Origin: Pseudomonadota bacterium
Lineage (GTDB): Bacteria; Pseudomonadota; Gammaproteobacteria; GCA-001735895
Assembly: GCA_022566015.1 (NCBI GenBank)
Contig: JADFJT010000015.1
Location: 1-39,471, forward strand
Direction of reading: 5' to 3'
Length of the DNA: 39,471 nucleotides
Shown here in pieces: positions 7,351-35,254 of the stretch (its first letter is position 1; each line of letters begins with the position of its first letter). The notes under the pieces were generated by a model. That model had not been told where the DNA came from and did no database searches. It saw only the letters and a program-made list of their open reading frames with translations. Position numbers and translations under genes: made by a program.

Positions 7351-8064
7351 ATGGCTGATTACGACGACGATGATTATGATGACGAAGAGGATCTCGATCT
7401 CTCGACGTTACCTGATGATGAACTCGTCGAACAAATGCATGATGATCTTTATAACGGGTTGAAGGAAGAAGTCGCCGAAGGCACCGATATACTGCTAGAG
7501 CGCGGGTGGAGTGCCAACAAGGTCTTGAACCAGGCACTGGTCGACGGCATGACTATTGTCGGCATCGACTTCCGCGATGGCATATTGTTTGTCCCCGAAG
7601 TACTGATGTCTGCGAATGCGATGAAGGCGGGTATGGCAATCCTTAAACCTCTTCTGGCTGAATCAGATGAACCGGCGGCTGGAAAAATGGTGATCGGTAC
7701 GGTCAAGGGCGATATCCACGATATCGGCAAGAACCTGGTATGCATGATGATGGAAGGCGCCGGTTTTGAAGTCATAAATCTCGGTATCAATACACCCGTG
7801 GAATCTTATCTGGCCGCACTTGAAGAACACAAACCCGATATCCTCGGCATGTCTGCGCTGCTGACTACCACGATGCCTTACATGAAAGTCGTGATCGATA
7901 CGATGAAAGAAAAAGGCATCCGTGATGATTACATTGTCATGGTCGGTGGTGCGCCGCTGAACCAGGAATTTAGTGAAGCAATAGGAGCGGATGCTTATTG
8001 TCGAGACGCAGCGGTTGCAGCAGAAACCGCCAAGCAATTAGTGGCTGAAAAGCGTGCGAAATAA
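7351..8064 (+). CDS. Corrinoid (B12-binding) methyl-carrier protein
   Basis: This 237-aa MtbC/MtgC-like protein carries the methyl group on cobalt between methyltransferases. A helical cap domain (residues about 25-110, including GIDFRDGILFVPEVLMSANAM) is followed by the B12-binding Rossmann domain. The latter has DIHDIGKN (His123 as lower axial ligand), Ser168 in GMSALLTTT and the GG pair at 199-200. The N-terminus is extraordinary: 11 of the first 16 residues are Asp or Glu, and acidity continues to about residue 32. GAGGA precedes the ATG. It is the first gene of the operon running to 13621. A B12 riboswitch signature is not visible upstream. Confidence 0.95.
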   Translation: MADYDDDDYDDEEDLDLSTLPDDELVEQMHDDLYNGLKEEVAEGTDILLERGWSANKVLNQALVDGMTIVGIDFRDGILFVPEVLMSANAMKAGMAILKPLLAESDEPAAGKMVIGTVKGDIHDIGKNLVCMMMEGAGFEVINLGINTPVESYLAALEEHKPDILGMSALLTTTMPYMKVVIDTMKEKGIRDDYIVMVGGAPLNQEFSEAIGADAYCRDAAVAAETAKQLVAEKRAK

Positions 8065-8083
8065 TCGAAATCGCAAGGGCGAT

Positions 8084-8698
8084 ATGGAAAAGGCAGTCTC
8101 GATTCTGGTGATTACCTGCGCCGCAGTCGCACGGGAAGTGAATGACATAAAAAAATTCAGCCAGTGGGCACAGATGGATTTACAAAGTATCACTGCTGAT
8201 CTGCACGCAACACCCGAAAAAATCCCACAGGCGGTGGCTGACAAGATCGACCAGGCGCGCGATTCCTACGACCATATATTTGTTGCCTATGGCGATTGTG
8301 GTACTAGCGGTGAGCTGGACCGAGTATTACAGGAACGCGGTGTGAGCCGTTTACCTGGGGCACATTGTTATGACTTTCTCGCCGGTGAAAAAACATTTGC
8401 GCAGTTGCAGGAGGATGAACCCGGCACTTTTTACCTCACCGATTTTCTCGCGCGACATTTTGATCGGCTGGTGATTGGAACTCTGGGGATAGACCGGCAT
8501 CCTGAGCTCATGCCGATGTACTTTGGTAATTACAAGCGCGTGGTTTACCTGGCGCAAACCGATTCGGACGAATTGACCCGGATGGCGCAGCAGGCAGCGG
8601 ACAGGCTTGGACTGCAGTTCGAACGAATTTTTACCGGTACTGGTGAAATGGTGCCGGCACTCGATGCTGCGATGCAGAAGGCTTTGTGGCAAAAATAA
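8084..8698 (+). CDS. DUF1638-family protein
   Basis: This 204-aa protein shows the full DUF1638 pattern: an N-terminal VITCAAVARE, then YGDCGTSGELD, GAHCYDF, a pGTFYLTDFLARHFD block, HPELMPMYFGNYKRVVYLAQT, and a final GLQFERIFTGTGEM. Conserved Cys12, Cys72, His94 and Cys95 could bind a metal or corrinoid, but this is inference and the family has no established reaction. ATG 8084 with AAGGGCG upstream is preferred over GTG 8054, which would overlap the corrinoid gene. The next gene overlaps its 3' end. Members recur beside MttB-type methyltransferases and corrinoid proteins, so an accessory role in methyl transfer or cofactor loading is likely. Confidence 0.85.
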   Translation: MEKAVSILVITCAAVAREVNDIKKFSQWAQMDLQSITADLHATPEKIPQAVADKIDQARDSYDHIFVAYGDCGTSGELDRVLQERGVSRLPGAHCYDFLAGEKTFAQLQEDEPGTFYLTDFLARHFDRLVIGTLGIDRHPELMPMYFGNYKRVVYLAQTDSDELTRMAQQAADRLGLQFERIFTGTGEMVPALDAAMQKALWQK

Positions 8699-9000
8699 AA
8701 ATAGTCTACTGGCGTGATATTCCGGGCCAGGTAGTGGTGCGCAAAGGTCGGCGCAGTACGCGTTTGCGTCTTCCCGCAAGATTTTTGAGAGCGATCGAAC
8801 GGGCAGCATATCGCTTGAAGAAACATCAGGAAGATGCCTGGTTTGAGCCGTGGCATGACGTCGAGCAGCCGTTTAAGGGGGATGCAACGGAGCAGGCAAA
8901 CAAGCTTGTCCAGCAACTGAAAGAACACTATTCCGAAGCGGTTCTGGACAAATTAATTCGTGCGAGTGGCAAAGACGATACTCGCACTATAGGCGGCTGA
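8686..9000 (+). CDS. Small basic 'virulence factor'-family protein (PF13769-like)
   Basis: This 104-aa protein begins KIKIVYWRDIPGQVVVRKG, which matches the small family labelled 'virulence factor' in domain databases. Despite the name, its recurrent setting is corrinoid one-carbon clusters. Residues 18-47 are strongly basic (RKGRRSTRLRLPARFLRAIE and onward), and the C-terminal half is helical and more neutral. The start is GTG at 8686, overlapping the DUF1638 stop by 13 bases, so translation is coupled. The function is unknown. A possible role as a partner of the acidic corrinoid protein is my inference from charge and context only. Confidence 0.75.
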   Translation: MAKIKIVYWRDIPGQVVVRKGRRSTRLRLPARFLRAIERAAYRLKKHQEDAWFEPWHDVEQPFKGDATEQANKLVQQLKEHYSEAVLDKLIRASGKDDTRTIGG

Positions 9001-9012
9001 CGGGAGCCATCC

Positions 9013-9480
9013 ATGTACAAGATCCGCCAGTGGTCGGTAACTCATTCGAGAAAACTCGAAGCAATCTACACTGTTTTTGAGGCGATTCTTGTCGGCCTAC
9101 ATCCATTGTTTAACTTGATCGGATACGAACGTCTGGAAAAACCGGTGCGAATAGTCGAGAAGTTTTTCAAAGGGCTGATGTTCGATTGCCAGATGTGCGG
9201 ACAATGCGCATTGAGTTCTACAGGTATGTCCTGTCCAATGAATTGCCCGAAATCAATTCGCAATGGTCCCTGTGGCGGCGTGCGACTCGATGGTCATTGC
9301 GAAGTAAAGCCTGAGATGCGTTGTGTCTGGATCGAAGCCTGGCGCGGCAGCCAGCAAATGCGAAAAAGCGATGCGATTCACAGGGTACAGGTGCCGGTTA
9401 ATTTCAGCTACCAGGACAGTTCCTCCTGGTTGCGGGTCGTCAGAAATGAAATGGCTGTGCATGATAGTGAGATAGCCTGA
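9013..9480 (+). CDS. Cys-rich MetV-like protein (MTHFR C-terminal domain family)
   Basis: The 155-aa protein matches the 'methylene-THF reductase C-terminal' family that includes MetV of acetogens. It has eight cysteines in a conserved pattern: Cys59, 62 and 65 (CQMCGQC), Cys74, Cys78, Cys87 within NGPCGG, Cys96 and Cys104. These can bind Fe-S clusters or zinc. In MetVF-type enzymes this subunit accompanies the flavin-containing MetF subunit and connects it to other electron carriers. Here its TGA overlaps the ATG of the metF-like gene by one base, a strong sign of a complex. GGGAG lies six bases before the ATG. Which electron carrier it contacts is unknown. Confidence 0.88.
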   Translation: MYKIRQWSVTHSRKLEAIYTVFEAILVGLHPLFNLIGYERLEKPVRIVEKFFKGLMFDCQMCGQCALSSTGMSCPMNCPKSIRNGPCGGVRLDGHCEVKPEMRCVWIEAWRGSQQMRKSDAIHRVQVPVNFSYQDSSSWLRVVRNEMAVHDSEIA

Positions 9481-10472
9481 TGATAGCGTTCGAAAAATTG
9501 AATCCAGCCGAACCCCTGTCTGTATTAGAAGGTCATGTGTCGAGAGGCCGATTCGAGCGTTTGCTAAAATCGGGATATTTCGCAGTGACCGCAGAACTGG
9601 CGCCACCCGATTCTGCGCTTGCCGAGGATGTCTACGAGCGTGCCCGGATATTTGACGGTTATGTCGATGGAATGAACGCAACCGATGGCTCGGGCGCTAA
9701 TTGCCACATGTCTAGTGTGGCGATGTGTGCATTGTTAATCGGTGCTGGCTATTCACCGATCATGCAAATTTCGTGTCGCGACAAGAACCGAATCGCGATA
9801 CAGGGAGACGTGCTCGGTGCGGCCGCAATGGGGGTGTGCAATGTTCTATGCCTGAGCGGAGATGGCGTGCAAGTGGGTGACCACCCGGAAGCCAAGCCGG
9901 TGTTTGACCTGGACAGTATCTCCTTACTGAACGCGATCAAAACTATGCGTGACGAGTCAAAATTTATGAGCGGGCGTCCAATCACTACGCCCCCAAAGAT
10001 GTTTCTTGGTGCAGCGGAAAATCCATCTGCTCCGCCGATCGATTTTCGACCCTATCGACTCGCGAATAAAATTGCCGCCGGGGCGGATTTTATTCAGACG
10101 CAGTATATTTTTGATGTGCCACAGCTTAAAGAATTTATGTCGCGGGCGGGCGATATGGGCTTACTGGAGAAATGTTTTATTTTACCCGGCGTTGGTCCAC
10201 TCGCGTCTGCCAGAACCGCGACCTGGATCCGCGATAATGTGCCGGGTATTTATATCCCGGATCATATTATCGAACGCCTCGCGGGTGCGGAAAATCCTAA
10301 ACAAGAAGGTCAGAATATCTGTGTTGAATTGATGCAACAGATTCGCGAAATACCGGGCGTTAGCGGTATTCACGTGATGGCCTATCGGCAGGAGCAGGCG
10401 GTTCCGGATATTATCCAGCGGTCCGGCGTGCTTGATGGTCGCAAACCCTGGTATCCGGGCTGTGAGGATTAG
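9480..10472 (+). CDS. Methylenetetrahydrofolate reductase-family protein (MetF-like)
   Basis: This 330-aa TIM-barrel flavoprotein interconverts 5,10-methylene-THF and 5-methyl-THF. Visible hallmarks are the catalytic-type Glu39 in AVTAELAPP, DGMNATDG, the CRDKNR element, NVLCLSGD and FIQTQYIFD. The stop and start codons of the preceding MetV-like gene and this gene share one base, so the two are translationally coupled. In a demethylation pathway it would run in the oxidative direction, turning methyl-THF into methylene-THF (inference). It is more like the MetVF-type subunit than the stand-alone E. coli enzyme because of the partner gene. A 59-base gap separates it from the methyltransferase. 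Confidence 0.9.
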   Translation: MIAFEKLNPAEPLSVLEGHVSRGRFERLLKSGYFAVTAELAPPDSALAEDVYERARIFDGYVDGMNATDGSGANCHMSSVAMCALLIGAGYSPIMQISCRDKNRIAIQGDVLGAAAMGVCNVLCLSGDGVQVGDHPEAKPVFDLDSISLLNAIKTMRDESKFMSGRPITTPPKMFLGAAENPSAPPIDFRPYRLANKIAAGADFIQTQYIFDVPQLKEFMSRAGDMGLLEKCFILPGVGPLASARTATWIRDNVPGIYIPDHIIERLAGAENPKQEGQNICVELMQQIREIPGVSGIHVMAYRQEQAVPDIIQRSGVLDGRKPWYPGCED

Positions 10473-10531
10473 TCAGGCAATGATCGAGAGCAAACTTTCC
10501 AATTTAAACCAGTATACCCCGAGGGCACTCT

Positions 10532-11446
10532 ATGACCGAAACGGTTGTCAGCTCTGCTACTAAAGAATTAGTCATTGGCTTCGATCGTCCGTTCGTGATT
10601 ATCGGCGAACGAATCAATCCGACCGGTCGGAAAATTATGGCCGAGGAAATGAAAAATGGCGACTATAGCCGCGTCGAGGCCGATGCGATAGCCCAGGTTC
10701 AGGCGGGTGCGCACATGCTCGATGTGAATGCGGGCATTCCGCTTGCTGACGAGCCTCGTATTCTGGCAGAGGCTATTCAACTGGTGCAAAGCCTCACCGA
10801 TGTGCCGCTCAGTATCGACTCGTCGATCATCGAAGCACTGGAGTCGGGGCTTTCGGTATACCAGGGTAAAGCTCTGGTGAATTCGGTGACCGGAGAAGAC
10901 GAGAGTCTCGATCGAGTACTTCCACTGATTAAAAAATACGGTGCAGCAGTGGTGGCGATTTCGAACGATGAAACCGGCATTTCCGAGGATATTAATGTTC
11001 GTTTTAAGGTAGCGGAAAAAATAGTAAATCGAGCATCGGACTATGGCATTCCTGCCTGTGACGTCGTGGTCGACCCGCTGGTGATGCCAATCGGTGCGAT
11101 TAATACAGCCGGTAGAGAAGTGTTGAAATTAATCCACCGTCTGCGTACTGAATTAAAAGTCAATACCACTTGCGGTGCATCGAATATCAGCTTTGGCCTG
11201 CCTAACCGCAACGGATTTAACGGGGCCTTTATCAGTATGGCGATTCAGGCAGGCATGACCTCGGCAATTACCAATCCATTACACTCAGAAGTGATTGCGG
11301 CCAGTATGGGTGCGGACGTGATGTTGGGTAAAGATCCAGATTGTGGACGCTGGATTAAACAGTTCCGCGAACCCCTGCCCGAAGGAGCGATTGCTCGAGG
11401 TACCGGGCGCAGAGCAGGGCGCAGACGCCGCGCAGCAGTAGGATAA
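10532..11446 (+). CDS. Methyl-THF:corrinoid methyltransferase (pterin-binding, AcsE/MtvA-like)
   Basis: This 304-aa protein of the dihydropteroate-synthase-like TIM-barrel family transfers the methyl group between corrinoid protein and tetrahydrofolate. Motifs are GERINPTG (25-32), LDVNAG (63-68), SIDSS (94-98), NSVTGE, and NTTCGASNISFGLPNR (211-226), the last containing the conserved Asn that contacts the pterin. The C-terminus is odd: RGTGRRAGRRRRAAVG, an Arg-rich tail beyond the barrel. GAGG at 10521-10524 supports the ATG. The upstream MetF-like and downstream RACo-like genes fit methyl entry into the folate pool. Confidence 0.92.
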   Translation: MTETVVSSATKELVIGFDRPFVIIGERINPTGRKIMAEEMKNGDYSRVEADAIAQVQAGAHMLDVNAGIPLADEPRILAEAIQLVQSLTDVPLSIDSSIIEALESGLSVYQGKALVNSVTGEDESLDRVLPLIKKYGAAVVAISNDETGISEDINVRFKVAEKIVNRASDYGIPACDVVVDPLVMPIGAINTAGREVLKLIHRLRTELKVNTTCGASNISFGLPNRNGFNGAFISMAIQAGMTSAITNPLHSEVIAASMGADVMLGKDPDCGRWIKQFREPLPEGAIARGTGRRAGRRRRAAVG

Positions 11447-11450
11447 TTAT

Positions 11451-11603
11451 ATGTGGGGGTCTCTAGTTAATTGGATTTATTCGGCAGAGCAAGGAAGCAC
11501 CGCGCGCAAGATCGAAGTGTATGCGAAAATACATGAGGATCTGAGCACCGGGGTGAGGCAGCATTCGTGGGAAACGACAATAGATAGAAACCTCCAGAAA
11601 TGA
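11451..11603 (+). CDS. Small 50-aa ORF between methyltransferase and reactivase genes
   Basis: This unrecognised 50-codon ORF starts MWGSLVNWIYSAEQGSTARK and ends RNLQK. It has a good ribosome binding site: AGGA ends at about 11443, next to the upstream stop. Its TGA overlaps the ATG of the RACo-like gene as ATGA (11600-11603). The RACo-like gene itself lacks a clear Shine-Dalgarno sequence, so this ORF may deliver ribosomes to it. It could be a real small protein, with a hydrophobic aromatic N-terminus and a charged helical body, or a translated coupling leader. No homolog is known to me. Confidence 0.55.
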   Translation: MWGSLVNWIYSAEQGSTARKIEVYAKIHEDLSTGVRQHSWETTIDRNLQK

Positions 11604-13621
11604 GCGACGAAGTAAGCATATTATTCATGCCCTCGGGATTGAGGGGGCGAGTCCAGATTGGAACTTCAGTGCTACAGGCGGCGCAACGCCTGGGCGTGGA
11701 TCTGGAATCCATTTGTGGTGGTCAGGGAAAGTGTCGAAAATGCCAGGTGTCGCCTCAGGAGGGAGAGTTCCCCAAACACGGTATAACCTCGCGCCTCGAG
11801 CACCTGTCCGAATTTACCGAAACCGAACGTCACCACCAGGCTAAGAATCGGCTCAAGGAAGGTCGGCGCCTCGGATGCAATGCTCGCATTCTTGGCGACC
11901 TGGTCATCGATGTCCCAGAAGAAAGCCAGCATCACGCACACCATATTTCCAAGGCCGTGACAGCTTACGATATTCAGGTGCAACCGGCGCTGCGCCTGTA
12001 TACCGTTACCTTGCCAGAGCCTGATATGCACGCCCCACTATCGGATAAACGACGACTGCAACAGGCACTCGTACAGGACTTCGATCTACCAACACTGGAT
12101 TGCGAAATGTCGCAAATCCGCCTAATACAAAAAGCACTCGAAAAATCAGGGCGTTGCATCACCGCAGCGGTATATCAGCACGAACAGATTATTGGCATCT
12201 GGCCGGGAGAAAAAAAGAAAGCCTACGGGCTCGCCATTGATCTCGGTTCTACCACTATTGCGGCCCAATTGTGCGACCTGGATAGTGGAGAAGTGATAGC
12301 GACTGCGGATACGATGAATCCACAGATTCGCTTTGGCGAAGATTTAATGAGCCGAGTTTCTTATGTGATGATGAACGAAGGCGGTGATGTGGCGCTGACG
12401 ACTGTGGTACGCGAGGCATTCAACCTACTTGCCAAACGCGCGGCTAAATCAGCCGGCATTGCGCTGGACGAAATTCTAGATATGACTGTGGTGGCGAACC
12501 CGATTATGCACCATCTGTTTCTCGGAATCGATCCGACACCACTGGGGACTGCGCCATTTACCCTCGCCACCGATCAAACTACTGTGGTGCGTGCTGCAGA
12601 CCTCGATATTTACTTGCACCCGGAATCCCGAATATGTGTTTTACCCTGTATAGCAGGTCACATCGGTGCCGATACCGCTGGTATGATTTTAGCCGAGCGT
12701 CCAGACCTGGCTGAAGAATATGTTTTGCTGGTAGACGTAGGTACCAACGCCGAGATTGTACTCGGCAACCGAAATCGCTTGCTAGCGGCATCGAGTCCAA
12801 CCGGGCCCGCGTTCGAAGGTGCGCAAATTAGCGCGGGCCAGCGCGCTGCGCCCGGGGCAATTGAGCGGGTTCGTATAGACCCTGAAACACTGGAGCCAAA
12901 GTTTCGGGTGATCGGTTGCGAGGTCTGGTCTGATGACCCAGAATTCGCGCAGAAAAGTGCCAATGTCGGGGTCAGCGGAATATGTGGTTCTGGCATTATC
13001 GAAGTAATTGCAGAGATGTTTTTGGCCGGGATCATCGACCAGGACGGTGTAATCGGTCTGGTAGAAGGCAAGGATAGTAGCCGCGTGGCACTCGATGGTC
13101 GAACTTATTCTTACCTGTTGTACGAAGGTGACAAAACCCTGCGGGTGACGCAAAATGATGTGCGCGCGATCCAACTCGGCAAGGCTGCTTTGCATGCGGG
13201 AACGCGCTTATTGTTCGACCGCATGGGCATTACCAAGGTAGATCGGATTGGATTTGCAGGCGCGTTTGGCAGCCATATCGATGTCAAATACGCGATGGTG
13301 TTGGGCCTGATCCCGGATTGTAAGCTGGAAAATGTCGGCTCGGTTGGCAATGCGGCAGGTACCGGTGCGCGCATCGCATTGTTAAATATGCCCTCACGCA
13401 TCGAGATCGGTGAAATACTGCCCAAAGTGGAAAAAATAGAAACCGCGCTCGAACCAAAGTTTCAGGAATATTTCATCGAAGCGATGGCGCTACCCCACAA
13501 AGTCGATAAATACGAAGAACTATCCAAGGTGGTAAAGATTCCGCCGCCGAAACCCAAAGCCGAAAGTGATAGGGCAAACGGTAGTAAACGCAAGTCCCGC
13601 AGGCGACGTAAGCAGGTTTAA
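11600..13621 (+). CDS. Corrinoid reactivating protein (RACo/RamA-like, ferredoxin plus ASKHA domain)
   Basis: This 673-aa protein reactivates accidentally oxidised Co(II) corrinoid using ATP. The N-terminal [2Fe-2S] ferredoxin domain has Cys39, Cys45, Cys48 and Cys93 (ICGGQGKCRKC and LGCNARI). A linker precedes the ASKHA ATPase domain (DUF4445), starting with GLAIDLGSTTIAAQL and including LLVDVGTNAEIVLGN, CGSGIIEVIAEM and GFAGAFGSHID. The C-terminus is a basic tail (KRKSRRRRKQV) not needed by the fold. The start overlaps the small ORF stop as ATGA. It is the last gene of the operon, followed by a hairpin. The physiological electron donor is not encoded here. Confidence 0.93.
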   Translation: MSDEVSILFMPSGLRGRVQIGTSVLQAAQRLGVDLESICGGQGKCRKCQVSPQEGEFPKHGITSRLEHLSEFTETERHHQAKNRLKEGRRLGCNARILGDLVIDVPEESQHHAHHISKAVTAYDIQVQPALRLYTVTLPEPDMHAPLSDKRRLQQALVQDFDLPTLDCEMSQIRLIQKALEKSGRCITAAVYQHEQIIGIWPGEKKKAYGLAIDLGSTTIAAQLCDLDSGEVIATADTMNPQIRFGEDLMSRVSYVMMNEGGDVALTTVVREAFNLLAKRAAKSAGIALDEILDMTVVANPIMHHLFLGIDPTPLGTAPFTLATDQTTVVRAADLDIYLHPESRICVLPCIAGHIGADTAGMILAERPDLAEEYVLLVDVGTNAEIVLGNRNRLLAASSPTGPAFEGAQISAGQRAAPGAIERVRIDPETLEPKFRVIGCEVWSDDPEFAQKSANVGVSGICGSGIIEVIAEMFLAGIIDQDGVIGLVEGKDSSRVALDGRTYSYLLYEGDKTLRVTQNDVRAIQLGKAALHAGTRLLFDRMGITKVDRIGFAGAFGSHIDVKYAMVLGLIPDCKLENVGSVGNAAGTGARIALLNMPSRIEIGEILPKVEKIETALEPKFQEYFIEAMALPHKVDKYEELSKVVKIPPPKPKAESDRANGSKRKSRRRRKQV

Positions 13622-13625
13622 TTTT

Positions 13626-13646
13626 CCCTCTCCCTCTGGGCGAGGG
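13626..13646. terminator. Hairpin between convergent genes
   Basis: CCCTCTCCC (13626-13634), a TCT loop and GGGCGAGGG (13638-13646) form a nine-base stem with one mismatch. It sits in the 35-base gap between the convergent RACo-like and GlxA-family genes and could terminate both. It belongs to the same dispersed CCCTCTCC palindrome type as 23938-23960. There is no long T-run. Confidence 0.45.
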
Positions 13647-13656
13647 GCTACCTTAT

Positions 13657-14667
13657 CTAACTCGCCAGGCCCGCTGCAGGTACGTCCTGCGCCTGCGAGT
13701 TTTGCAATTTACGGCGCTCATCGCGCGGTGGAATACCGTACATGTCGCGGTAACATTTGCTGAAATGGGGTGCCGAAATAAATCCGCAGGCGAGTGCGAT
13801 ATCGACGATGGACTTGCTAGTCTGGAGTAGTAACAGGCGTGCGCGGTTCAGGCGCAAATTCAGGTAGTAACGGGTTGGGACGCAGTTCAAATGTTTCTGG
13901 AACAATCGCTCGAGTTGCCTGCAGGAAATACCCACGTAATTGGATAACTCGTTAAGACCGATCGGCTCTTCCAGATTAGCTTCCATCAGTGTAACTGCCT
14001 CGGTGAGCTTCGGTTGATTGGCACCGAGGTGTAATTGCAGGGGTATGCGCTGGCGATCGTCGGTTCCGCGAATACGTTCGCACATGAATTGCTCGGATAT
14101 TTTTGCAGCCAGTTTTGGCCCGTGGCGATCGGTGATTAGTTTGAGCATCATATCAAGAGAAGACTGTCCGCCAGCGCAGGTAATTCGATCACGATCGAAC
14201 TGAAATAAATCGTCTGAAAATTGCGCGTTTGGGAATTCTTCGCGTGCGCTGGCTATATTTTCCCAGTGTATCGTGCACTTGTATCCATCGAGCAAACCAG
14301 CGCGTGCGAGCAGATAGCTGCCGGTGCATAGTGCGCCGAGGATAATACGGCGTTTTGCTATTTTGCGTATCGCGAACTGGAACGACTTATTCCAGCTATC
14401 TGAAATATCGACGCCACCACAAACGAAGAATATTGAAACATTGCTCACCGAATCGATGCCGAAGTCTGGGGTGATTTCGATCCCGTTGCTGGCCTTTATC
14501 GGCAGTCCATCGATGCTATAAATAGACCAGGTATAGAGTGTTGACTGGGCCGCCCGGTTAGCCATACGCAAACACTCGATGGCCGAGGTGAAAGCTATCA
14601 TCGAATAGTTGTGGACTAGCAGGAAGCCGAAATGATCAGGTTTCACTTCGGTGTTTTTTTCACTCAT
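13657..14667 (-). CDS. GlxA-family transcriptional regulator (GbdR/CdhR-like)
   Basis: This 336-aa protein has an N-terminal DJ-1/PfpI-like ligand domain (HFGFLLVHNYSMIAFTSAIECLRMANR, then GALCTGSYLLARAGLLDGYKCTIHWEN). The C-terminal AraC-type domain has two HTH motifs, near LNELSNYVGISCRQLERLFQKHL and IVDIALACGFISAPHFSKCYRDMYG. Regulators of this subfamily in Pseudomonas (GbdR, CdhR) sense glycine betaine, dimethylglycine or carnitine. The start at 14667 (MSEKNTEVKPDHF) is preferred over an upstream TTG at 14733. It faces the corrinoid operon and shares strand with the mttB-like gene, so control of methylamine catabolism is the likely job (inference). Confidence 0.9.
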   Translation of the reverse strand: MSEKNTEVKPDHFGFLLVHNYSMIAFTSAIECLRMANRAAQSTLYTWSIYSIDGLPIKASNGIEITPDFGIDSVSNVSIFFVCGGVDISDSWNKSFQFAIRKIAKRRIILGALCTGSYLLARAGLLDGYKCTIHWENIASAREEFPNAQFSDDLFQFDRDRITCAGGQSSLDMMLKLITDRHGPKLAAKISEQFMCERIRGTDDRQRIPLQLHLGANQPKLTEAVTLMEANLEEPIGLNELSNYVGISCRQLERLFQKHLNCVPTRYYLNLRLNRARLLLLQTSKSIVDIALACGFISAPHFSKCYRDMYGIPPRDERRKLQNSQAQDVPAAGLAS

Positions 14668-14993
14668 AGGCGAACTACAGGCTTTTATGCGACCAAACCC
14701 AAATAATTTGATCAATATATGACCAGGGACCAATAAAATACTAGTCGGTAATTCATGCTATTGCACGAAATATTTAAAATTGTGAATGGTAGTAGCCTTA
14801 TTACGGCGGCATTTTGCTTGAAAAATAGACTGCAGGTTGTCCTCTTGCCAAAGTGCTAGATTCAGTCACCAGCCTAATATAACCGAATGAATGAATCTGC
14901 GAGATGCGTCTCACAGATCCGCTATTGAATGGCGGGATCAGAGCCGGTGGTAATTTCTCTATCACCCCTCCATTTGTGCGTGGCTGGAAATTC
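14668..14993. other. Non-coding gap upstream of the GlxA-family gene
   Basis: About 326 bases lie between the regulator's start and the 3' end of the cupin pseudogene. A plus-strand frame at 14904-15131 is open, but it runs antisense to the pseudogene and has no recognisable protein pattern. The region presumably carries the regulator's promoter. No clear promoter, repeat or RNA was identified. Confidence 0.4.
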
Positions 14994-15405
14994 TCACTCC
15001 TCTGGAACCATCAAGGGTTTGCCAGGGTCACCTATCTGAAAGATTATAGCTTCCAGGTCGTCGGATGCGCTTGCATTTCTACCCACCATCGCTACTTTCG
15101 GGGAAAAAATATCCCGCCTTATAGAGGGTAAATTGACCATTCATATCCACGGTAAGCTCGCCCGCGACCACGTACACATAGAAAGCTCCAGGATGCGTGC
15201 GTATGCTTGGGGGTAGCAAATCCAGGTGGGCCCGATAAGCGAACTATTATTATTTCTTTCCCCGCTATACCAGGGAGAGGAGCCTGGTATATTTTTCCAA
15301 CACCGCTTTCCGCCCGGTTTCGTGAGCATTTACTGCCTGGAAACTCACTATTCCAGTCATTATTAATGAAGCCAGCACGATTTTGATAATACTAATTAAT
15401 TTCGT
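14994..15405 (-). pseudogene. Decayed secreted cupin-domain protein
   Basis: Reading the minus strand, AGGAG (15416-15412) precedes KLISIIKIVLASLIMTG and then FQAVNAHE, a clear signal peptide, but the expected start triplet at 15405-15403 is ACG. The protein then breaks three times. A shift near 15290-15275 leads to PGIAGKEIIIVRLSG and PKHTH. A one-base shift near 15197 leads to HPGAFYVYVVAGELTVDMNG, the cupin metal-site motif. A shift near 15080 leads to RNASASDDLEAIIFQIGD and VPEE, with TGA at 14996-14994. Together they make one short periplasmic cupin of about 130 aa. It lies downstream of the SAM methyltransferase on the same strand. Confidence 0.8.
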
Positions 15406-15482
15406 TTATTTCTCCTATATTTGGGTGCCATAGTGCACCTGTAGTTTTGTATACAGCATTAAACGTAATAAGTTTGGGTCTT

Positions 15483-16316
15483 TCATCGGCTTTTTTGCGC
15501 AATCATTTCTATGGGTGCTATGAAATTGGTAGCGATATTTTCAACCATGTTTTTGACTTTCTCAGCAGTGGATTCCTGCATCAGAACATGCAGTCCGAGA
15601 GGTGGTGGATTAACATTAGCGGCTAATTTTGCTTTTAACTGGTTGAAAAATTCAAGCGCGAATTCTCGTCGGTTATTCTCTTTAGTGACTTTAAATCCGG
15701 CTTTATCCAGTGTTCGCCTGTATTCATCGGGTGACGCTAAACGGCTGGTAGTGGCTGCTGTGGCCCAGGGCACCGGATAGGACAGTTCACCCGCATTAAC
15801 CTGCATAACATCATAAACGCCGAAACAGGCGCCTGGGCGTAACACACGATAAATCTCGGTAAAAAGTTTCTCTTTATCCTCGATATTCATACCGACGTGC
15901 AACATTAAAGCACCATCGAATGATTCATCTCCGAACGGCATAGAAAGTGCGCTTCCCTGGTGAAGGGTGATTTGATTATCGAGACCGACCCAGGAACAAA
16001 GGGTATTTCCGACCCTGATATATTCCTCGGTTAAATCGATTCCAGTCACACGGCTATTAAGCTGGTTTGCTATCAGCCGTGATGTGCCGCCCAGACCACA
16101 GCCAACATCAAGAATATGATCAGGGTAAGAAAAATTTAGCTGGTCTAGTAAATTGGCGGTCGCAATGCGTCCACCCGTATGAAATTCGTCAATCGGACCG
16201 AGGTCGTCTACTGTTACATTATCGGTTGTTTTACCCAGTTTGGTAATTGCCGCTTCGATTACCCCCATTAAATTTCCGTGGGTATAGTGCTCTGAAACGG
16301 CATTTTCATAAGACAT
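15483..16316 (-). CDS. Class I SAM-dependent methyltransferase
   Basis: This 277-aa methyltransferase has motif I as ILDVGCGLGGTSRLIA, then TGIDLTEEYI, a motif around FDGALMLHVGMNIEDKE, and a RVLRPGACFGVYDVM motif. Before the Rossmann core is DEFHTGGRIATANLL, typical of the sarcosine/dimethylglycine- and tocopherol-type methyltransferase branch. The substrate is unknown. The start at 16316 (MSYENAVSEHYTHG), with AAGAG upstream, is chosen over a TTG at 16358. It lies 117 bases downstream of the mttB-like gene on the same strand. A methyl-adding enzyme next to a methyl-removing one is odd. It may act on a different amine or on a pathway intermediate. Confidence 0.88.
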   Translation of the reverse strand: MSYENAVSEHYTHGNLMGVIEAAITKLGKTTDNVTVDDLGPIDEFHTGGRIATANLLDQLNFSYPDHILDVGCGLGGTSRLIANQLNSRVTGIDLTEEYIRVGNTLCSWVGLDNQITLHQGSALSMPFGDESFDGALMLHVGMNIEDKEKLFTEIYRVLRPGACFGVYDVMQVNAGELSYPVPWATAATTSRLASPDEYRRTLDKAGFKVTKENNRREFALEFFNQLKAKLAANVNPPPLGLHVLMQESTAEKVKNMVENIATNFIAPIEMIAQKSR

Positions 16317-16433
16317 ATTCAATCTCTTTATAGCCTTTACTACCGCCGAAATCGCCAACCCGGATGAAATTAAAAGACTCGAACAGGGGGCCTACTCTAA
16401 TGTCCTCTCGATCACACTGATCGCGGCAATCGT

Positions 16434-18008
16434 TCAATAAGCCGAATCGGGCATAGAATCCTTGCGTTGCTTGATGAAATCCAGCAGGGCCTCGTCGATT
16501 GCAGGGTCTAGTTCCGGCGCCTGATATTCGGCCAGAAGCTTTTTGTAGCGAGCGTTGGCACGTTGCGCATGGTCCAGGCTACCTTCCGATTCCCACTGCT
16601 CGAAACTATTATTGTCGGCGATCGGAGAACGGTAAAAAGCAGTCTTGAAGTTAATTTGAGTGTGTTTGCACCCGAGGAAATGTACCCCTGGCCCAACTTC
16701 ACGTATCGCATCCATCGCCTGACCGTTTTCGGACAGATCGATGCCGCCTAACAGAATTTCCATCATCGCAGCCTGATCGACGTCCATGATAAATTTTTCA
16801 TAGCCCATGGATAGACCGCCTTCCATCCAGCCCGCAGCGTGTAATATGAAATTGACCCCAGCGTGCACCGCAGGTAACAGGGTATTAGCTGCTTCGGATG
16901 CCGCCTGTGCATCGGGCAATTTCGAAGCGCATAATCCGCCACCCGAACGAAAAGGAACGCCCAGGCGTCGCGCCAGCGCTGCCATTGCGTAGAGAACCAA
17001 TGCGGGCTCGGGTGTGCCGAAAGTTGGTGCGCCGGATTGCATCGACATCGAGCTGGCGAAGCTGCCAAAGATCATCGGTGCACCGGGGTTGACCAGTTGC
17101 ACAAAGGTCATGCCCGCGAGTCCTTCGGCCAGTGATTGAGCCGCAGTGCCCGCTACTGTCACCGGTGACATTGCCCCGGCCAGAATAAACGGAGTAATAA
17201 TGCAGGCCTGATTATTTTCGGCGTATACCTTGGCCGCGCCGAGCATGGTATCGTCGTAAGTCATCGGTGAATTGGCATTAATCAGGCTCGTGGCATAGGT
17301 TCTCGGCCTGCCGGTTTCCGGGTCAATATAATTATCGCCCGCCAGGATCTTGATCATTTCGACCGTGTCCTGTGCGCGTTCCGGTGCGGTAACCGAACCC
17401 ATGAATGCCTTGTCCGAAAATTTAATATGCGAATACACCATGTCGAGGTGACGCTTATTTACCGGCACGTCTACCGGCTCGCAAATAGTACCGCCTGACA
17501 AATGCATGCTCGGAGAGACATAAGCGAGTTTGACAAAATTCTGGAAGTCTTCCAGCGTTGCATAACGTCTGCCTTTATCGAGATCAAATACAAAGGGGCT
17601 GCCGTAAGCGGGAACGAATACAGTGTGCTTTCCACCGATGCGTACGTTTCTAGCCGGGTTTCGAGCGTGTTGGGTATATTCGGCCGGCGCGGAAGCCTGG
17701 ATGATCGAACGACATAATCCGCGTGGGAATCGAACGCGTACCCCGTCGATCTCGGCACCGCCTTTTTTAAGAATATCCAGCGCCTCTGGCATGTCGCGAA
17801 ATTCGATCCCAATCTCTTCGAGAATAATGTCGGCATTCGTTTCGATCAGCGACAGTCCTTCCTCATCGAGAATTTCGAAACAGGGTATTTTACGTGTGAT
17901 ATAAGGCGCACTAGGGGCTACGATTTTACTTTCAGCAAGGCGCGCTGCACGACCACCTCGACCACGGCCTCGACGTGATTTGCGCCCTGATTTCAGGCTT
18001 TCACTCAT
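16434..18008 (-). CDS. MttB-superfamily corrinoid methyltransferase, non-pyrrolysine
   Basis: This 524-aa protein belongs to the trimethylamine methyltransferase superfamily (COG5598). It demethylates a quaternary or tertiary amine onto a corrinoid protein. Visible blocks are PCFEILDEEGLSLIETNADI, FVPAYGSPFVFDLDKGRR, FGTPEPALVLYAMAALAR and the late barrel segment NFILHAAGWMEGGLSMGYEK. It reads through without an in-frame amber codon, so it is of the MtgB type rather than Pyl-containing MttB. GGAG lies six bases before ATG 18008, which is better than TTG 18020. Residues 9-23 form an Arg/Gly-rich tail (RKSRRGRGRGGRAAR). The substrate is unproved: glycine betaine, proline betaine, carnitine and similar are candidates. 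Confidence 0.93.
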   Translation of the reverse strand: MSESLKSGRKSRRGRGRGGRAARLAESKIVAPSAPYITRKIPCFEILDEEGLSLIETNADIILEEIGIEFRDMPEALDILKKGGAEIDGVRVRFPRGLCRSIIQASAPAEYTQHARNPARNVRIGGKHTVFVPAYGSPFVFDLDKGRRYATLEDFQNFVKLAYVSPSMHLSGGTICEPVDVPVNKRHLDMVYSHIKFSDKAFMGSVTAPERAQDTVEMIKILAGDNYIDPETGRPRTYATSLINANSPMTYDDTMLGAAKVYAENNQACIITPFILAGAMSPVTVAGTAAQSLAEGLAGMTFVQLVNPGAPMIFGSFASSMSMQSGAPTFGTPEPALVLYAMAALARRLGVPFRSGGGLCASKLPDAQAASEAANTLLPAVHAGVNFILHAAGWMEGGLSMGYEKFIMDVDQAAMMEILLGGIDLSENGQAMDAIREVGPGVHFLGCKHTQINFKTAFYRSPIADNNSFEQWESEGSLDHAQRANARYKKLLAEYQAPELDPAIDEALLDFIKQRKDSMPDSAY

Positions 18009-18124
18009 TTCAGACTCCAAAATATACTCACAGGTCGCGGATGATTTACGAGTTCAACGCCCTGAGTCTCGAAAAACTATTTTATCGAAATTCCCGTTCT
18101 AATTAAGTATGATTTTTGCCCTTA

Positions 18125-18143: not shown

Positions 18144-18210
18144 CGACCCTGATCTGTTTGCGAGCGTCATTTGTGGCCTTAGCGGATTCATAATTGAGTT
18201 GTCGGTCAGC

Positions 18211-19233
18211 ATGTATAGGATAGAATGGGGAATCAATAACAACGCAAACACCGCTAGGGTTTCCCGTATTTCCATTCAAACTGAAAAAATTGGCATCTTG
18301 TTGATCGATGGTTACCCGTTGATCCCATTTAGCTGCGTCGTGGATGCGTTACGGGTCGCCAACCGGTTGTCAGAAAGCGAGTTATACGAATGGGAATATT
18401 TTGCACCCAATGGCGATCCGGTGTCGGCCAGTAGTGGAATCCTGGTTCCGACTCTGCCTCTCACCGAAGCCAAAAATCTGGTAACACTGGTAATTTGTGC
18501 CCCGAATACGGCCCAGCATTTCACCGATGCCAGCACCCTGAATATCCTCAAAAGCCTCGACAGACAGGGGGTCAATCTCGGCAGTGTGAGCTCGGGTAGT
18601 TTTCTTTTGGCGAAGGCTGGTTTGCTCGATAATTGCCGATGCACGATACACTGGGAAAACATTCCAGTGTTTAAGGAACTTTACCCGCAAATAGACGTGA
18701 CTTTTACTCTCTACGAAATCGATCAAAAGCGCTTCACCTGTTCGGGCGGTACTGCGGCACTGGATATGATGCTGAAATTAATCGAAAATCAGTATGGCCG
18801 GGTGTTGGCGCAGGAAATTTCAAGGCAGTTCCAACACGATCGAATTCGTACCGAAATTGACTCACAGCAGATGGCGGATCGAATCGACCTGGCAATGAGA
18901 GCGCCCCGGCTGATCGATGTGATCAAATTGATGGAATCCAATATAGAAGTACCGCTCTCGTTACCGAGTATCGCTAATCAATGCAATTTATCGCTTCGAC
19001 AGATCGAGCGATTATTCCACAAGTATCGCAGTATGACGCCCAGTCAGTATTACCTGTCATTGCGATTAACGCATGCAAAACAATTATTATTAAATACTAC
19101 TAGCAGTGTCATCGATATCTCAATCGCCACCGGCTTCGAGACTCAGTCTTATTTCACTGCCTGTTATCGCAAGGTGTTTGGCCAGTCGCCGCGTAGCCAT
19201 CGTTCCCAAGTAGCAACCGAGCGACAGGGTTAG
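18211..19233 (+). CDS. GlxA-family transcriptional regulator (GbdR/CdhR-like), second copy
   Basis: This 340-aa protein has the same architecture as the regulator at 13657-14667. The DJ-1/PfpI-like sensor domain carries KIGILLIDGYPLIPFSCVVDALRVANR and GSVSSGSFLLAKAGLLDNCRCTIHWEN. The AraC-type HTH pair lies near LPSIANQCNLSLRQIERLFHKYR and VIDISIATGFETQSYFTACYRKVFG. The canonical Cys of the nucleophile elbow position is replaced by Ser (SVSSGS versus ALCTGS in the other copy), so the two may read different ligands. ATG 18211 is preferred over TTG 18199. It is divergent from the mttB-like gene, which makes that gene its most likely target. Confidence 0.9.
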   Translation: MYRIEWGINNNANTARVSRISIQTEKIGILLIDGYPLIPFSCVVDALRVANRLSESELYEWEYFAPNGDPVSASSGILVPTLPLTEAKNLVTLVICAPNTAQHFTDASTLNILKSLDRQGVNLGSVSSGSFLLAKAGLLDNCRCTIHWENIPVFKELYPQIDVTFTLYEIDQKRFTCSGGTAALDMMLKLIENQYGRVLAQEISRQFQHDRIRTEIDSQQMADRIDLAMRAPRLIDVIKLMESNIEVPLSLPSIANQCNLSLRQIERLFHKYRSMTPSQYYLSLRLTHAKQLLLNTTSSVIDISIATGFETQSYFTACYRKVFGQSPRSHRSQVATERQG

Positions 19234-22383: not shown

Positions 22384-23727
22384 ATGGCGATACCAACGAA
22401 AGTAAAATATCTAATCGTCGGGGCAGGCATCCACGGATTGAGCACGGCGTATCATCTGGCCTTGCAGCTAAAAGCTCAGGGTAAGGGCGATGGACGCGAT
22501 ATTTTGATCGTTGATAAAGGCGGTATAGCCGCCGGTGCCTCCGGTATTGCCTGCGGCGTGGTTCGTAATAACTACTTTCAACCGGCGATGCGCGAGCTCA
22601 TGGCGCACAGTGTCGCTGTCTGGGAAACCGATCCAGAGGGTTATAGTTACCACTCGGTGGGCTATTTGCAAATCAGCCCCGAAAGCATGCACGCGGATGT
22701 GGCTACGATTGCCCAGCAGCAAAAAGACATCGGTTACGAGTCCACATTCATCGAAGGCGAGAAAGAGTCCTCCGATTACATGAAAAGCCTGTTCCACGAC
22801 TGGCAGGCCAAAGGTATTACTTCGGTACTGCATGAAAAGCGTGGCGGTTATGCGAATAACACCAGGGCCATGTATGCGCTCGCCACAAAGGCTGAGAATG
22901 AGGGGGTTAGAATAATTACTGGTTGTACCGTCACCGGATTCAAGAGCGACTCCGCCAGCGGCGCGATCAAGGCAGTCGAGACCGACAAGGGCGAAATTGG
23001 CTGTGACCAGGTCATAATAGGTGCTGGTCCCTGGGTCAAAACAATCTGGGATATGCTCGAACTACCTAAAACCGTCAGCATTAAAGGCAAGGACGGGAAC
23101 ATGCACCACGACATCCCGATGTGGATTTACTGGTCACTGCAGGAAGGCACGCTCGGGGTCGATCCTGATTTACAAAAAACCAACGACGGTAGGTTTCCAC
23201 CGGTGATCCACGTCGACAGTAACGAACCGCTGTACTCCGACTCCGATGGATCGCTGATCACCGACAAGATGTGGGGCATTTACTACAAACCTGACTTTCA
23301 CTTCGGCGGTATACAGGGCGGAGCGGCACCCTATGCAATCAAAACCGACCCCGATGATGTGGCCGTCGACCCCTATGGAGTCGACTCCCCCGACTTTATC
23401 GTCGGTGAAGACTTTGCCCACATGTGGACATCTGCGCTCGCGCACTGTCAAAAACGTTTCGAAGGTCAGTTCGAGTATTACAAGAACGAACCCTCGGGTG
23501 GTATTGGCTCGTTTACCCCGGATAGTTTTCCGGTTTTTGACGTATTCCGTGAAAACTGTTACCTGATCGCCGATTCGAATCACGGCTACAAGATGCTCGG
23601 TGTCGGCAAGCTGGTCGCAGAAGAGATCTGTGGAATGAAGAGCTCATTACTCGAACCCTTCCGCTTCTCGCGGTACGAGCAGGGCAAGTTACACCCGGTG
23701 TCGAGCAGCCCTTTTCCCTGGAGTTAG
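22384..23727 (+). CDS. DAO-family FAD-dependent oxidoreductase (sarcosine/dimethylglycine oxidase-like)
   Basis: The 447-aa flavoprotein has the dinucleotide-binding motif YLIVGAGIHGLSTAYHLA and the second half of the FAD site in ILIVDKGGIAAGASGIACGVVRNNY. The DAO-fold continues with QVIIGAGPWVK and a C-terminal DSNHGYKMLGVGKLVAEEI. The family oxidises the C-N bond of amino acids such as sarcosine, dimethylglycine, proline or D-amino acids. The exact substrate is not visible. The SGIACGVVRNN segment is close to the His-flavin attachment region of sarcosine oxidases, but no such His is there. In context, a secondary demethylation step after the MttB-like reaction is plausible. Confidence 0.85.
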   Translation: MAIPTKVKYLIVGAGIHGLSTAYHLALQLKAQGKGDGRDILIVDKGGIAAGASGIACGVVRNNYFQPAMRELMAHSVAVWETDPEGYSYHSVGYLQISPESMHADVATIAQQQKDIGYESTFIEGEKESSDYMKSLFHDWQAKGITSVLHEKRGGYANNTRAMYALATKAENEGVRIITGCTVTGFKSDSASGAIKAVETDKGEIGCDQVIIGAGPWVKTIWDMLELPKTVSIKGKDGNMHHDIPMWIYWSLQEGTLGVDPDLQKTNDGRFPPVIHVDSNEPLYSDSDGSLITDKMWGIYYKPDFHFGGIQGGAAPYAIKTDPDDVAVDPYGVDSPDFIVGEDFAHMWTSALAHCQKRFEGQFEYYKNEPSGGIGSFTPDSFPVFDVFRENCYLIADSNHGYKMLGVGKLVAEEICGMKSSLLEPFRFSRYEQGKLHPVSSSPFPWS

Positions 23728-34433: not shown

Positions 34434-35254
34434 GTCTGTCTCCCAGGAAGAAAGGCCATACCCGTGGCTACGTGATACCGATTGGCGGTGCCGAAGAGCA
34501 AACCGGTTCACAAAAAGTATTAAAACGCTTCGTCAAGTTATGCGGTGGCAGGAAGGCTCGTATTGCGATCATTCCGACTGCGTCAAACCTGTCGGATACC
34601 GGCGATAAATATATCGAAATATTCGAAAAAATAGGAGTTAGCAAGGCCGTCTCGCTTACCATCAACGATCGAGCCGAAGCCAGTCGGCAGGATTATCTGG
34701 ATCAACTAGAACAGGTAGATGGCATATTTATTACGGGTGGAAATCAGCTGCGCCTTTCTACCATTCTTGGCGGCACAGAAGTCGCACAAAAAATTCGGCG
34801 CATGAATGCCAGAGGTGTGCACATTGCCGGTACCTCAGCTGGCGCCGCAATAATGCCCGAACACATGATTGCGGGCGGGGCTACCGGTTCGATACCCTCG
34901 GGAGACGGTGTCAATCTCGCACCCGGTCTGGGCTTGACCAACGCGCTGTTAATCGACCAGCATTTTAGCCAGCGCGACCGACTCGGACGCCTGTTGACCG
35001 CTATATCCTATAACCCGTTCGTGCTGGGCGTTGGATTAGACGAAGATACCGCCATTTTTATCGACCCGGAACATAGTTTTGAAGTCGTCGGTAGTGGCGC
35101 AGTGACAGTGATCGACCCAATCCATTTGAGCTACTCGTCGATGAGCAAGGCATCGAAGAAAGAGGCCTTGAGTATGCTCGATTTAAAGCTACATATTTTA
35201 TCGAAAGGTTGTACTTTTGATATAGAAGAAAGGAAGCCATATCCACCCAAATAA
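34430..35254 (+). CDS. cphB: Cyanophycinase
   Basis: This 274-aa S51-family serine peptidase hydrolyses cyanophycin to beta-Asp-Arg dipeptides. It has YVIPIGGAEEQ, the nucleophile Ser136 in HIAGTSAGAAIM, TGGNQ at about 102-106, and DQHFSQRDRLGRL with the catalytic-type His. The start overlaps the iadA stop by four bases, so degradation enzymes are co-translated. The cphA gene follows after 198 bases. No signal peptide is seen, so it acts on cytoplasmic granules. Confidence 0.94.
   Translation: MSLSPRKKGHTRGYVIPIGGAEEQTGSQKVLKRFVKLCGGRKARIAIIPTASNLSDTGDKYIEIFEKIGVSKAVSLTINDRAEASRQDYLDQLEQVDGIFITGGNQLRLSTILGGTEVAQKIRRMNARGVHIAGTSAGAAIMPEHMIAGGATGSIPSGDGVNLAPGLGLTNALLIDQHFSQRDRLGRLLTAISYNPFVLGVGLDEDTAIFIDPEHSFEVVGSGAVTVIDPIHLSYSSMSKASKKEALSMLDLKLHILSKGCTFDIEERKPYPPK

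What the first reader, a model, noticed from the sequence alone, without database searches (positions are those of the whole stretch)
7351..18008. Complete corrinoid/THF methyl-transfer pathway in a ubiquinone-type gammaproteobacterium
One region encodes a non-pyrrolysine MttB-like methyltransferase, corrinoid carrier, methyl-THF:corrinoid methyltransferase, MetF/MetV-like reductase and ATP-dependent reactivase. Such systems are best characterised in anaerobic archaea, acetogens and Desulfitobacterium. Here the neighbours (UbiA, FAD oxidoreductase, choline dehydrogenase, DDAH) suggest aerobic oxidation of methylated amines instead of the usual Rieske-type glycine betaine monooxygenase. The substrate and how Co(I) survives oxygen are open questions.
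Basis: partly seen in the sequence, partly recalled or inferred. Interest (0 to 1): 0.75.

Follow-up and report, generated by a model that had tools for sequence, protein, structure and literature searches.

The report
Aerobic glycine betaine demethylation gene cluster
These genes very likely let an oxygen-breathing bacterium strip methyl groups from glycine betaine with vitamin B12 and burn them for energy, a route already published in 2025; what seems new is a small partner protein, mislabelled a virulence factor, that nearly always goes with this route.

Summary
A seven-gene core lies at 7351-13621: corrinoid carrier, DUF1638, a small PF13769 protein, MetV, MetF, methyl-THF:corrinoid methyltransferase and reactivase. 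A non-pyrrolysine MttB lies at 16434-18020. Best reading: aerobic glycine betaine demethylation. MttB methylates the carrier, the THF enzyme takes the methyl group, MetV/MetF oxidise it. No recognisable GbcA. An Azoarcus plasmid carries the same core and a 78%-identical MttB near betaine transporters, betAB, FolD, PurU, ETF and ETF-ubiquinone oxidoreductase. The pathway is not new: Mausz et al. 2025 (PMC12478193) showed it genetically in Ruegeria and reported it in Gammaproteobacteria. Here one carrier probably serves eight MttB genes; a classical MetH is also present. The fresh lead is the small 'virulence factor' protein (8686-9000). Among 299 genomes of the phylum all 28 with its family have MttB, 29 having MttB; among 369 of the class, 22 have each above cut-off, 21 both. 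Where found, DUF1638 is always upstream of it and the THF enzyme downstream. Paper searches found no such role for it. No function was tested.

The parts
7351..8064 (+). corrinoid carrier (MtgC-like); the only PF02607 protein found in the genome besides MetH
8054..8698 (+). DUF1638 protein, predicted to help reactivate cobalamin
   Evidence: Price 2018 passages
8686..9000 (+). PF13769 'Virulence_fact' small protein (104 aa), proposed undocumented partner of the carrier/THF methyltransferase step
9013..9480 (+). MetV-like (DUF5981), eight Cys
9480..10472 (+). MetF-like MTHFR, proposed to oxidise methyl-THF
10532..11446 (+). methyl-THF:corrinoid methyltransferase (MtgD-like)
11600..13621 (+). 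ATP-dependent reductive reactivase (RACo/AcsV/RamA-like, Fer2 domain)
13657..14733 (-). GlxA/AraC-type regulator, GbdR-like (choline/glycine betaine regulator), just below the model cut-off
15483..16358 (-). class I SAM methyltransferase, no match in 80 ortholog loci at the thresholds used; probably not part of the conserved system
16434..18020 (-). non-pyrrolysine MttB (MtgB-like); likely glycine betaine:corrinoid methyltransferase
18199..19233 (+). second GbdR-like regulator (329.7 bits against cut-off 480)
22384..23727 (+). DAO-family FAD oxidoreductase, distant sarcosine-oxidase-beta relative; possible later demethylation step
24909..26579 (+). choline dehydrogenase BetA (choline towards glycine betaine)

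Best explanation
The window holds the shared core of an aerobic corrinoid/tetrahydrofolate demethylation system whose principal substrate is glycine betaine. MttB (16434-18020) moves one methyl group from glycine betaine to the Co(I) corrinoid on the carrier (7351-8064), leaving dimethylglycine. The THF enzyme (10532-11446) passes the methyl group to THF; MetV/MetF (9013-10472) oxidise methyl-THF to methylene-THF, which goes on to formyl-THF and formate. Co(II) formed by oxidation is returned to Co(I) by the ATP-dependent reactivase (11600-13621) with DUF1638. Dimethylglycine and sarcosine are demethylated by flavoenzymes coded elsewhere. The single carrier probably serves seven further MttB proteins in this genome with other substrates. 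The PF13769 protein is proposed to be a regular part of the core, acting at the carrier/THF-methyltransferase step. Shown here: gene content, order, conservation, co-occurrence. From the Ruegeria genetics: need for carrier and THF enzyme. Inferred: substrate, direction, single-hub use, PF13769 role.
For: Domains and motifs intact. MttB is 66% identical to PDB 4YYC and 48% to the D. hafniense protein of PDB 2QNE (glycine betaine methyltransferase MtgB by the passage; 9YCE, same family, bears that name); the other seven own MttB proteins are 27-39% identical to it. 4YYC is encoded at the same operon on S. meliloti record CP090106 (100% over 512 aa). Azoarcus KH32C plasmid pAZKH carries core, MttB (78%), betA, betB, glycine betaine ABC transporter, FolD, PurU, ETF, ETF-ubiquinone oxidoreductase and a large FAD oxidoreductase within 48 kb. 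Of 80 ortholog loci, 61 carry DMGDH/Sox-like, BetA or GbdR-like genes and 39 carry carrier, DUF1638, THF enzyme or reactivase genes in the flanks held. GbcA not recognisable: seven PF00848 proteins score 125-157 bits against a cut-off of 670. Fhs present. Mutants of mtgC and mtgD in Ruegeria lose growth on glycine betaine (PMC12478193, Results part 1).
Against: No enzyme of this genome has been assayed. In the tree the D. hafniense enzyme falls outside a group holding both the window clade and four paralogs, with long branches, so orthology to the proven enzyme is not shown. A count of residues shared only with MtgB does not single out the window protein (16, against 19 for a divergent paralog). 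The carrier is below both NCBIfam MtgC cut-offs (219.6 against 370; 178.9 against 310). Another paralog (contig 33) lies beside a DMGDH-like gene and could be the glycine betaine enzyme. The GbdR-like scores are below cut-off. 19 of 80 ortholog loci showed none of DMGDH/Sox-like, BetA or GbdR-like genes in the flanks held.
Confidence: 0.8

Rival explanations
1. The same machinery, but this MttB demethylates another quaternary amine (proline betaine, carnitine, choline, a sulfonium), while the contig-33 paralog beside a DMGDH-like gene handles glycine betaine.
For: Eight MttB genes in the genome; MttB relatives differ in substrate; the contig 33 paralog is beside a DMGDH-like gene; the tree does not tie the window clade to MtgB alone.
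Against: Highest identity of the eight to D. hafniense MtgB (48%); linkage to GbdR-like regulators (35 of 80), DMGDH/Sox-like genes (33 of 80), BetA (10 of 80); betaine transporter island in Azoarcus.
Confidence: 0.17
2. The core works mainly as a split methionine synthase (carrier + THF enzyme + a BHMT-like MtgE), not in catabolism.
For: Split synthase proven in Phaeobacter and dual use in Ruegeria (PMC5764234, PMC12478193); a BHMT-like protein over its cut-off (467.3 against 338) lies on contig 34 next to MetH; BHMT-like genes in 12 of 80 ortholog loci.
Against: A classical MetH is present (its first 824 residues already score 1497.9 against 1497); the core is linked to MttB and catabolic genes, and no PF02574 gene lies in the window.
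Confidence: 0.1
3. The PF13769 gene is a passenger that travels with the operon by joint inheritance and has no role in methyl transfer.
For: Small protein, no conserved Cys or His, no detectable fold relative; the words PF13769 and virulence do not occur in Price 2018, which names the methionine-rescued genes; a second copy in this genome lies away from the core; the window copy is only 31-41% identical to all but its four closest relatives.
Against: Near-perfect co-occurrence with MttB in two genome samples, also where PF13769, DUF1638 and MttB genes are dispersed (G083, G205, G226); fixed operon place, 34 of 38 copies upstream of the THF enzyme on the same strand within 3.5 kb; invariant W-R-D, P, F residues.
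Confidence: 0.35

Closest known systems
MtgBCD of Ruegeria pomeroyi and other aerobic marine bacteria (Mausz et al. 2025, PMC12478193)
   Same: MttB-family enzyme, cobalamin carrier, pterin enzyme, MetF-like enzyme, RamA-like and DUF1638 proteins; no recognisable GbcA; several MttB paralogs (paper: up to seven); the paper reports it in Gammaproteobacteria and says core genes are often co-located.
   Different: Here MetH is present as well; MetV/MetF pair, where the paper names MetF2; eight MttB genes; the paper's main text mentions neither PF13769 nor MetV (supplements not seen).
S. meliloti core cluster with the PDB 4YYC MttB
   Same: Same gene order from carrier to reactivase, MttB 67% identical.
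   Different: Extra formyl transferase and small genes between DUF1638 and PF13769; its PF13769 protein is nearer to the common form (58.8% over 68 aa to Pseudomonas L020; window copy 38%).
Azoarcus sp. KH32C plasmid pAZKH island
   Same: Core in the same order, MttB 78%, GlxA regulator.
   Different: Adds glycine betaine transporter, betB, FolD, PurU, ETF and ETF-QO near by; on a plasmid typed mobilizable.
Desulfitobacterium hafniense MtgBAC
   Same: Non-pyrrolysine glycine betaine methyltransferase, 48% identical.
   Different: Anaerobe; carrier here below the MtgC model cut-offs; D. hafniense MtgA was described as lacking sequence identity with known structures (abstract start of PMC7154762 in a search listing), whereas the THF enzyme here matches solved CFeSP methyltransferases.
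Phaeobacter inhibens three-part methionine synthase (Price 2018, PMC5764234)
   Same: Carrier, pterin protein, RamA-like and DUF1638 reactivation proteins (passages).
   Different: Here tied to catabolic genes, with MetH present.

Membership tests
Aerobic MtgBCD glycine betaine demethylation system | PF06253 methyltransferase without pyrrolysine | tested here: met
   754 bits, no internal stop, Leu363 at the presumed Pyl position
Aerobic MtgBCD glycine betaine demethylation system | separate cobalamin carrier with DxHxxG | tested here: met
Aerobic MtgBCD glycine betaine demethylation system | separate pterin-binding methyltransferase | tested here: met
   PRK07535 351.7 against 259
Aerobic MtgBCD glycine betaine demethylation system | RamA-like and DUF1638 reactivation proteins | tested here: met
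Aerobic MtgBCD glycine betaine demethylation system | MetF-like oxidation of methyl-THF | tested here: inconclusive
   MetV and MetF families present; the oxidative direction cannot be tested here
Aerobic MtgBCD glycine betaine demethylation system | methyl transfer from glycine betaine | not testable with these tools
   needs enzyme or mutant work
D. hafniense-type MtgB/MtgC (glycine betaine specific) | MttB grouping with proven MtgB to the exclusion of other paralogs | tested here: inconclusive
   48% identity but MtgB outside the window-plus-paralog group, long branches, midpoint root
D. hafniense-type MtgB/MtgC (glycine betaine specific) | carrier over the NCBIfam MtgC cut-offs | tested here: not met
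   219.6 against 370; 178.9 against 310
Pyrrolysine trimethylamine methyltransferase MttB | in-frame amber codon and model cut-off | tested here: not met
   no internal stop; TIGR02369 264.3 against 525
Glycine betaine monooxygenase GbcAB route | GbcA over its cut-off in the genome | tested here: not met
   seven PF00848 proteins at 125-157 bits against 670; genome 96% complete, so a missed gene is possible
Split methionine synthase | carrier, pterin protein and a separate homocysteine-binding subunit | tested here: met
   BHMT-like protein on contig 34 (467.3 against 338); use in methionine synthesis not tested and MetH is present

The most novel reading that the evidence does not exclude
The small PF13769 'virulence factor' protein is an undocumented, regular component of the proteobacterial (aerobic) MttB/corrinoid demethylation machinery. 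It docks on the carrier or the THF methyltransferase and keeps methyl transfer running in air, for example by shielding Co(I) during hand-over. This would make it a missing piece in the question how such anaerobe-like chemistry works in aerobes. In favour of the aerobic link: the one control genome with PF06253 and DUF1638 (Methanosarcina acetivorans) shows no PF13769 match; other anaerobes were not tested.
Probability: 0.45. Interest if true: 0.7.

Novelty: new member of a known kind. Interest (0 to 1): 0.47.

Why it matters
Glycine betaine is an abundant osmolyte and its aerobic demethylation feeds carbon, nitrogen and C1 units in sea and soil. The cluster adds a bacterium with one carrier and eight MttB genes to a route published in 2025, and the same full core stands in Azoarcus, Pseudomonas and Halomonas records. 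The tight tie between PF13769 and MttB turns a misnamed family into a testable partner and warns against reading it as a virulence gene in these bacteria.

Tried and rejected
Fold searches for the PF13769 model (mean pLDDT 89.3) gave no clear relative: best Foldseek E 0.74, best VIA-align Z 3.3. The DUF1638 model (pLDDT 93.1) gave only weak matches, led by transcarbamylases (best E 1.2e-3, TM at most 0.43 in the 50 rows shown). Neither absence is evidence of a new fold.

A count of residues shared only with D. hafniense MtgB was meant to single out the window protein and did not.

The 'nine MttB genes' are eight: contigs 146 and 17 share 275 identical bases at their ends within one gene.

Paper searches: PF13769 found no paper (the name 'Virulence_fact' was not searched apart); 'virulence factor' with MttB or DUF1638 gave 14 papers, none on this operon by title or abstract start except Mausz 2025, which lacks the word virulence; a CvfC/YpgR search gave nothing of use in the 10 of 304 papers listed; searches with corrinoid, quaternary amine, DUF1638 and MtgD led back to the known papers at the top of the lists shown. 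Only open-licence PMC papers are held; supplements could not be read. Ticak 2014 is not held. Passages of PMC9842639 and PMC12155760 were seen; the first names 2QNE as MtgB, the second was not used.

Considered and dropped: trimethylamine with pyrrolysine (no amber codon); DDAH-derived dimethylamine as substrate (DDAH in 1 of 80 loci).

PF13769 is known to me from Gram-positive 'conserved virulence factor C' proteins; this is recalled, apart from the B. subtilis control match.
Full report
WHAT IS THERE. The window is contig 139 of a 2.97 Mb, 197-contig assembly, 96.2% complete. Seven genes in one direction at 7351-13621 encode a corrinoid carrier, DUF1638, PF13769 ('Virulence_fact'), DUF5981/MetV, MTHFR/MetF, a pterin-binding methyltransferase and a RACo-type reactivase; several overlap or nearly touch. 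A GbdR-like regulator (13657-14733), a SAM methyltransferase (15483-16358) and MttB (16434-18020) follow on the other strand. The MttB has no internal stop and has Leu363 at the presumed pyrrolysine position.

ORTHOLOGS ELSEWHERE. In their flanks, which differ in length, tblastn with window proteins found GbdR-like regulators in 35 of 80, reactivase 32, THF enzyme 31, carrier 30, DUF1638, MetV and MetF 26 each, PF13769 23, choline dehydrogenase 10, the DAO oxidoreductase 8, UbiA 1, DDAH 1. At slightly different thresholds 19 of 80 hold all seven core genes, 39 any of carrier, DUF1638, THF enzyme or reactivase, 33 a DMGDH/sarcosine-oxidase-like gene, and 61 at least one of DMGDH/Sox-like, BetA or GbdR-like. 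The 19 with the full core include Pseudomonas borbori, Pseudomonas sp. sp1636, Billgrantia campisalis, Halomonas lysinitropha and marine gamma proteobacterium HTCC2148. Two annotated records show the same order: S. meliloti CP090106 and Azoarcus KH32C pAZKH.

SUBSTRATE. The best context is pAZKH: within 48 kb it carries ETF-ubiquinone oxidoreductase, FolD, MttB, a choline transporter binding protein, betA, betB, a glycine betaine ABC transporter, the core, PurU, a GlxA regulator, ETF subunits and a large FAD oxidoreductase (names mostly as annotated). I read this as choline to glycine betaine, methyl groups to formate through THF, electrons to ubiquinone. The window itself has betA (813 against 732.1). 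The window MttB is 48% identical to the D. hafniense enzyme of 2QNE and 66% to 4YYC, which is the S. meliloti protein at the operon (100% over 512 aa). Against a firm assignment: in a 32-row tree the D. hafniense enzyme lies outside a group of the window clade plus four own paralogs, and several branches are very long; a residue count was not decisive. GbcA is not recognisable in the genome: seven PF00848 proteins score 125-157 bits against 670.

WHOLE GENOME. Nine PF06253 places are eight genes, since contigs 146 and 17 overlap by 275 identical bases inside one gene. PF02607 proteins: only the window carrier and MetH. So eight MttB proteins probably share one carrier; this is inferred. Neighbours, partly named by eye and partly by family: contig 33 lies beside a DMGDH-like gene broken by a stop and a frame change; contig 138 near a Rieske protein and PhyH-like proteins; contig 74 beside an aldehyde dehydrogenase and a probable GabT and near SoxA (1406.6 against 1164), with genes that look like the beta-hydroxyaspartate cycle (label recalled); contig 127 beside a DMGDH-like protein; contig 146/17 between an old-yellow-enzyme-type flavoprotein and an aldehyde dehydrogenase; contigs 96 and 82 (divergent, 19-28% identical to the other rows) beside DMGDH-like proteins. 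These suggest different substrates, none tested. A DMGDH-like query matched 11 places in nine genes, itself included, some only through the GCV_T part and one (374 aa) probably GcvT. Fhs is present. A BHMT-like protein lies on contig 34 beside MetH. The paralog number is not exceptional: other genomes in the phylum sample show up to 14 candidates, although at most four were scored per genome, and a genome of the same genus shows 25 candidates.

PRIOR ART. Mausz et al. 2025 (PMC12478193; I read the abstract, Results part 1 of 2, Discussion, and passages of the rest) show by proteomics and mutants of mtgC and mtgD that Ruegeria pomeroyi demethylates glycine betaine this way, link it to methionine synthesis, report mtgBCD in Alpha-, Gamma- and Deltaproteobacteria with up to seven PF06253 genes, and note that genomes with both metH and mtgBCD are typically Hyphomicrobiales, SAR324 and certain Alphaproteobacteria. 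Price et al. 2018 (PMC5764234; passages) show RamA-like and DUF1638 proteins are needed with the split methionine synthase of Phaeobacter.

THE LEAD BEYOND THE LITERATURE: PF13769. In 299 genomes of the phylum PF06253 occurs in 29 and PF13769 in 28; all 28 are among the 29, and the odd one, G088, has only a 57-bit fragment. DUF1638 is broader: 44 of 299, including the same 28. MetV is narrower: 15 of 299, 14 above cut-off; 13 of the 15 are in genomes with MttB. In 369 genomes of the class PF06253 occurs in 22 and PF13769 in 23, one of them below the curated cut-off; 21 are shared. MttB alone: G624, with only a divergent 322-bit MttB. PF13769 alone: G614 (44.9 bits) and the sub-threshold G497. 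The two samples overlap in part, and genomes are related, so the hypergeometric values (1.6e-38 and 5.4e-32) overstate the case; but the pairs fall in many families, and relatives without MttB in the same families (G443, G046, G050) lack PF13769 too.

Place of the gene: 38 loci with PF13769 were examined (24 of the 80 MttB loci and 14 stretches taken around PF13769 hits, so not a random sample). Carrier (27) and DUF1638 (29), when found, are always upstream on the same strand; the THF enzyme, found in 35, is always downstream, within 3.5 kb in 34 and at 3,516 bases in one; reactivase is within 3.5 kb downstream in 28. In seven loci of one family, f49 (L123-L126, L133-L135), the gene precedes the THF enzyme with no carrier or DUF1638 gene found nearby. 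In L076 (SAR324) and L073 it lies directly before the THF enzyme, without MetV/MetF between. One locus, the second copy of this genome on contig 115, has no core gene around it. The protein has invariant W9, R10, D11, P13, L29, F33, A36, G95 and no conserved Cys or His, so it is unlikely to be a redox or metal protein; an adaptor or docking role is my inference. The model is confident (pLDDT 89.3) but has no clear relative among solved structures. The window copy is diverged; the contig 115 copy has the usual motif, and two genomes of the same genus also have two copies. Among the 14 control genomes M. acetivorans matches PF06253 and DUF1638 but not PF13769; B. subtilis matches PF13769 but not PF06253, so outside this phylum the family has other contexts.

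VERDICT. A real, intact, well-conserved aerobic glycine betaine demethylation core, a new member of a published kind. The pathway claim is strong, the exact substrate of this MttB fairly strong, the single-hub use plausible. The PF13769 association is strong as a correlation; its function is open.

Noticed in passing
G000 contigs 33, 138, 74, 127, 146/17, 96, 82 (L089-L096): Seven further MttB genes lie beside or near flavin demethylases, aldehyde dehydrogenases, a Rieske protein or Sox genes, suggesting different methylated substrates fed into one carrier (partly named by eye).
   Followed up: partly
L122:6068-6367 (G000 contig 115): Second PF13769 gene with the usual motif, away from the core; two genomes of the same genus also have two PF13769 genes.
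   Followed up: partly
L138 (Azoarcus sp. KH32C plasmid pAZKH, 138000-186000): A plasmid typed mobilizable carries a near-complete choline/glycine betaine-to-formate island with this core; a possible route for horizontal spread.
   Followed up: partly
window 14800-15400, minus strand: Short overlapping ORFs with cupin-like pieces (by eye) look like a decayed gene; with the SAM methyltransferase at 15483-16358 they fill the space between GbdR-like gene and MttB, which is shorter in several close relatives.
   Followed up: no
G000 contig 33: 8206-10553 (L089): The DMGDH-like gene next to an MttB paralog is broken by an in-frame TAG and a frame change; either a pseudogene or an assembly error.
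   Followed up: no
L096:5763-7088: A URO-D family protein (24.3 bits against 23.9) beside a divergent MttB and DMGDH-like gene; URO-D relatives include corrinoid methyltransferases (recalled).
   Followed up: no
window 33270-38257: Adjacent genes that read as isoaspartyl dipeptidase, cyanophycinase and cyanophycin synthetase (by eye, not searched): nitrogen storage near a betaine catabolism cluster.
   Followed up: no
L123:6566-7510: The 315-aa protein between PF13769 and the THF enzyme in a same-phylum genome has no Pfam match; perhaps the MetF2 type of Ruegeria.
   Followed up: no
L064, L042: Records titled Klebsiella pneumoniae MAG and Planktophila lacus MAG carry this proteobacterial-type MttB at 73-74% identity; probably misnamed or mixed bins.
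   Followed up: no
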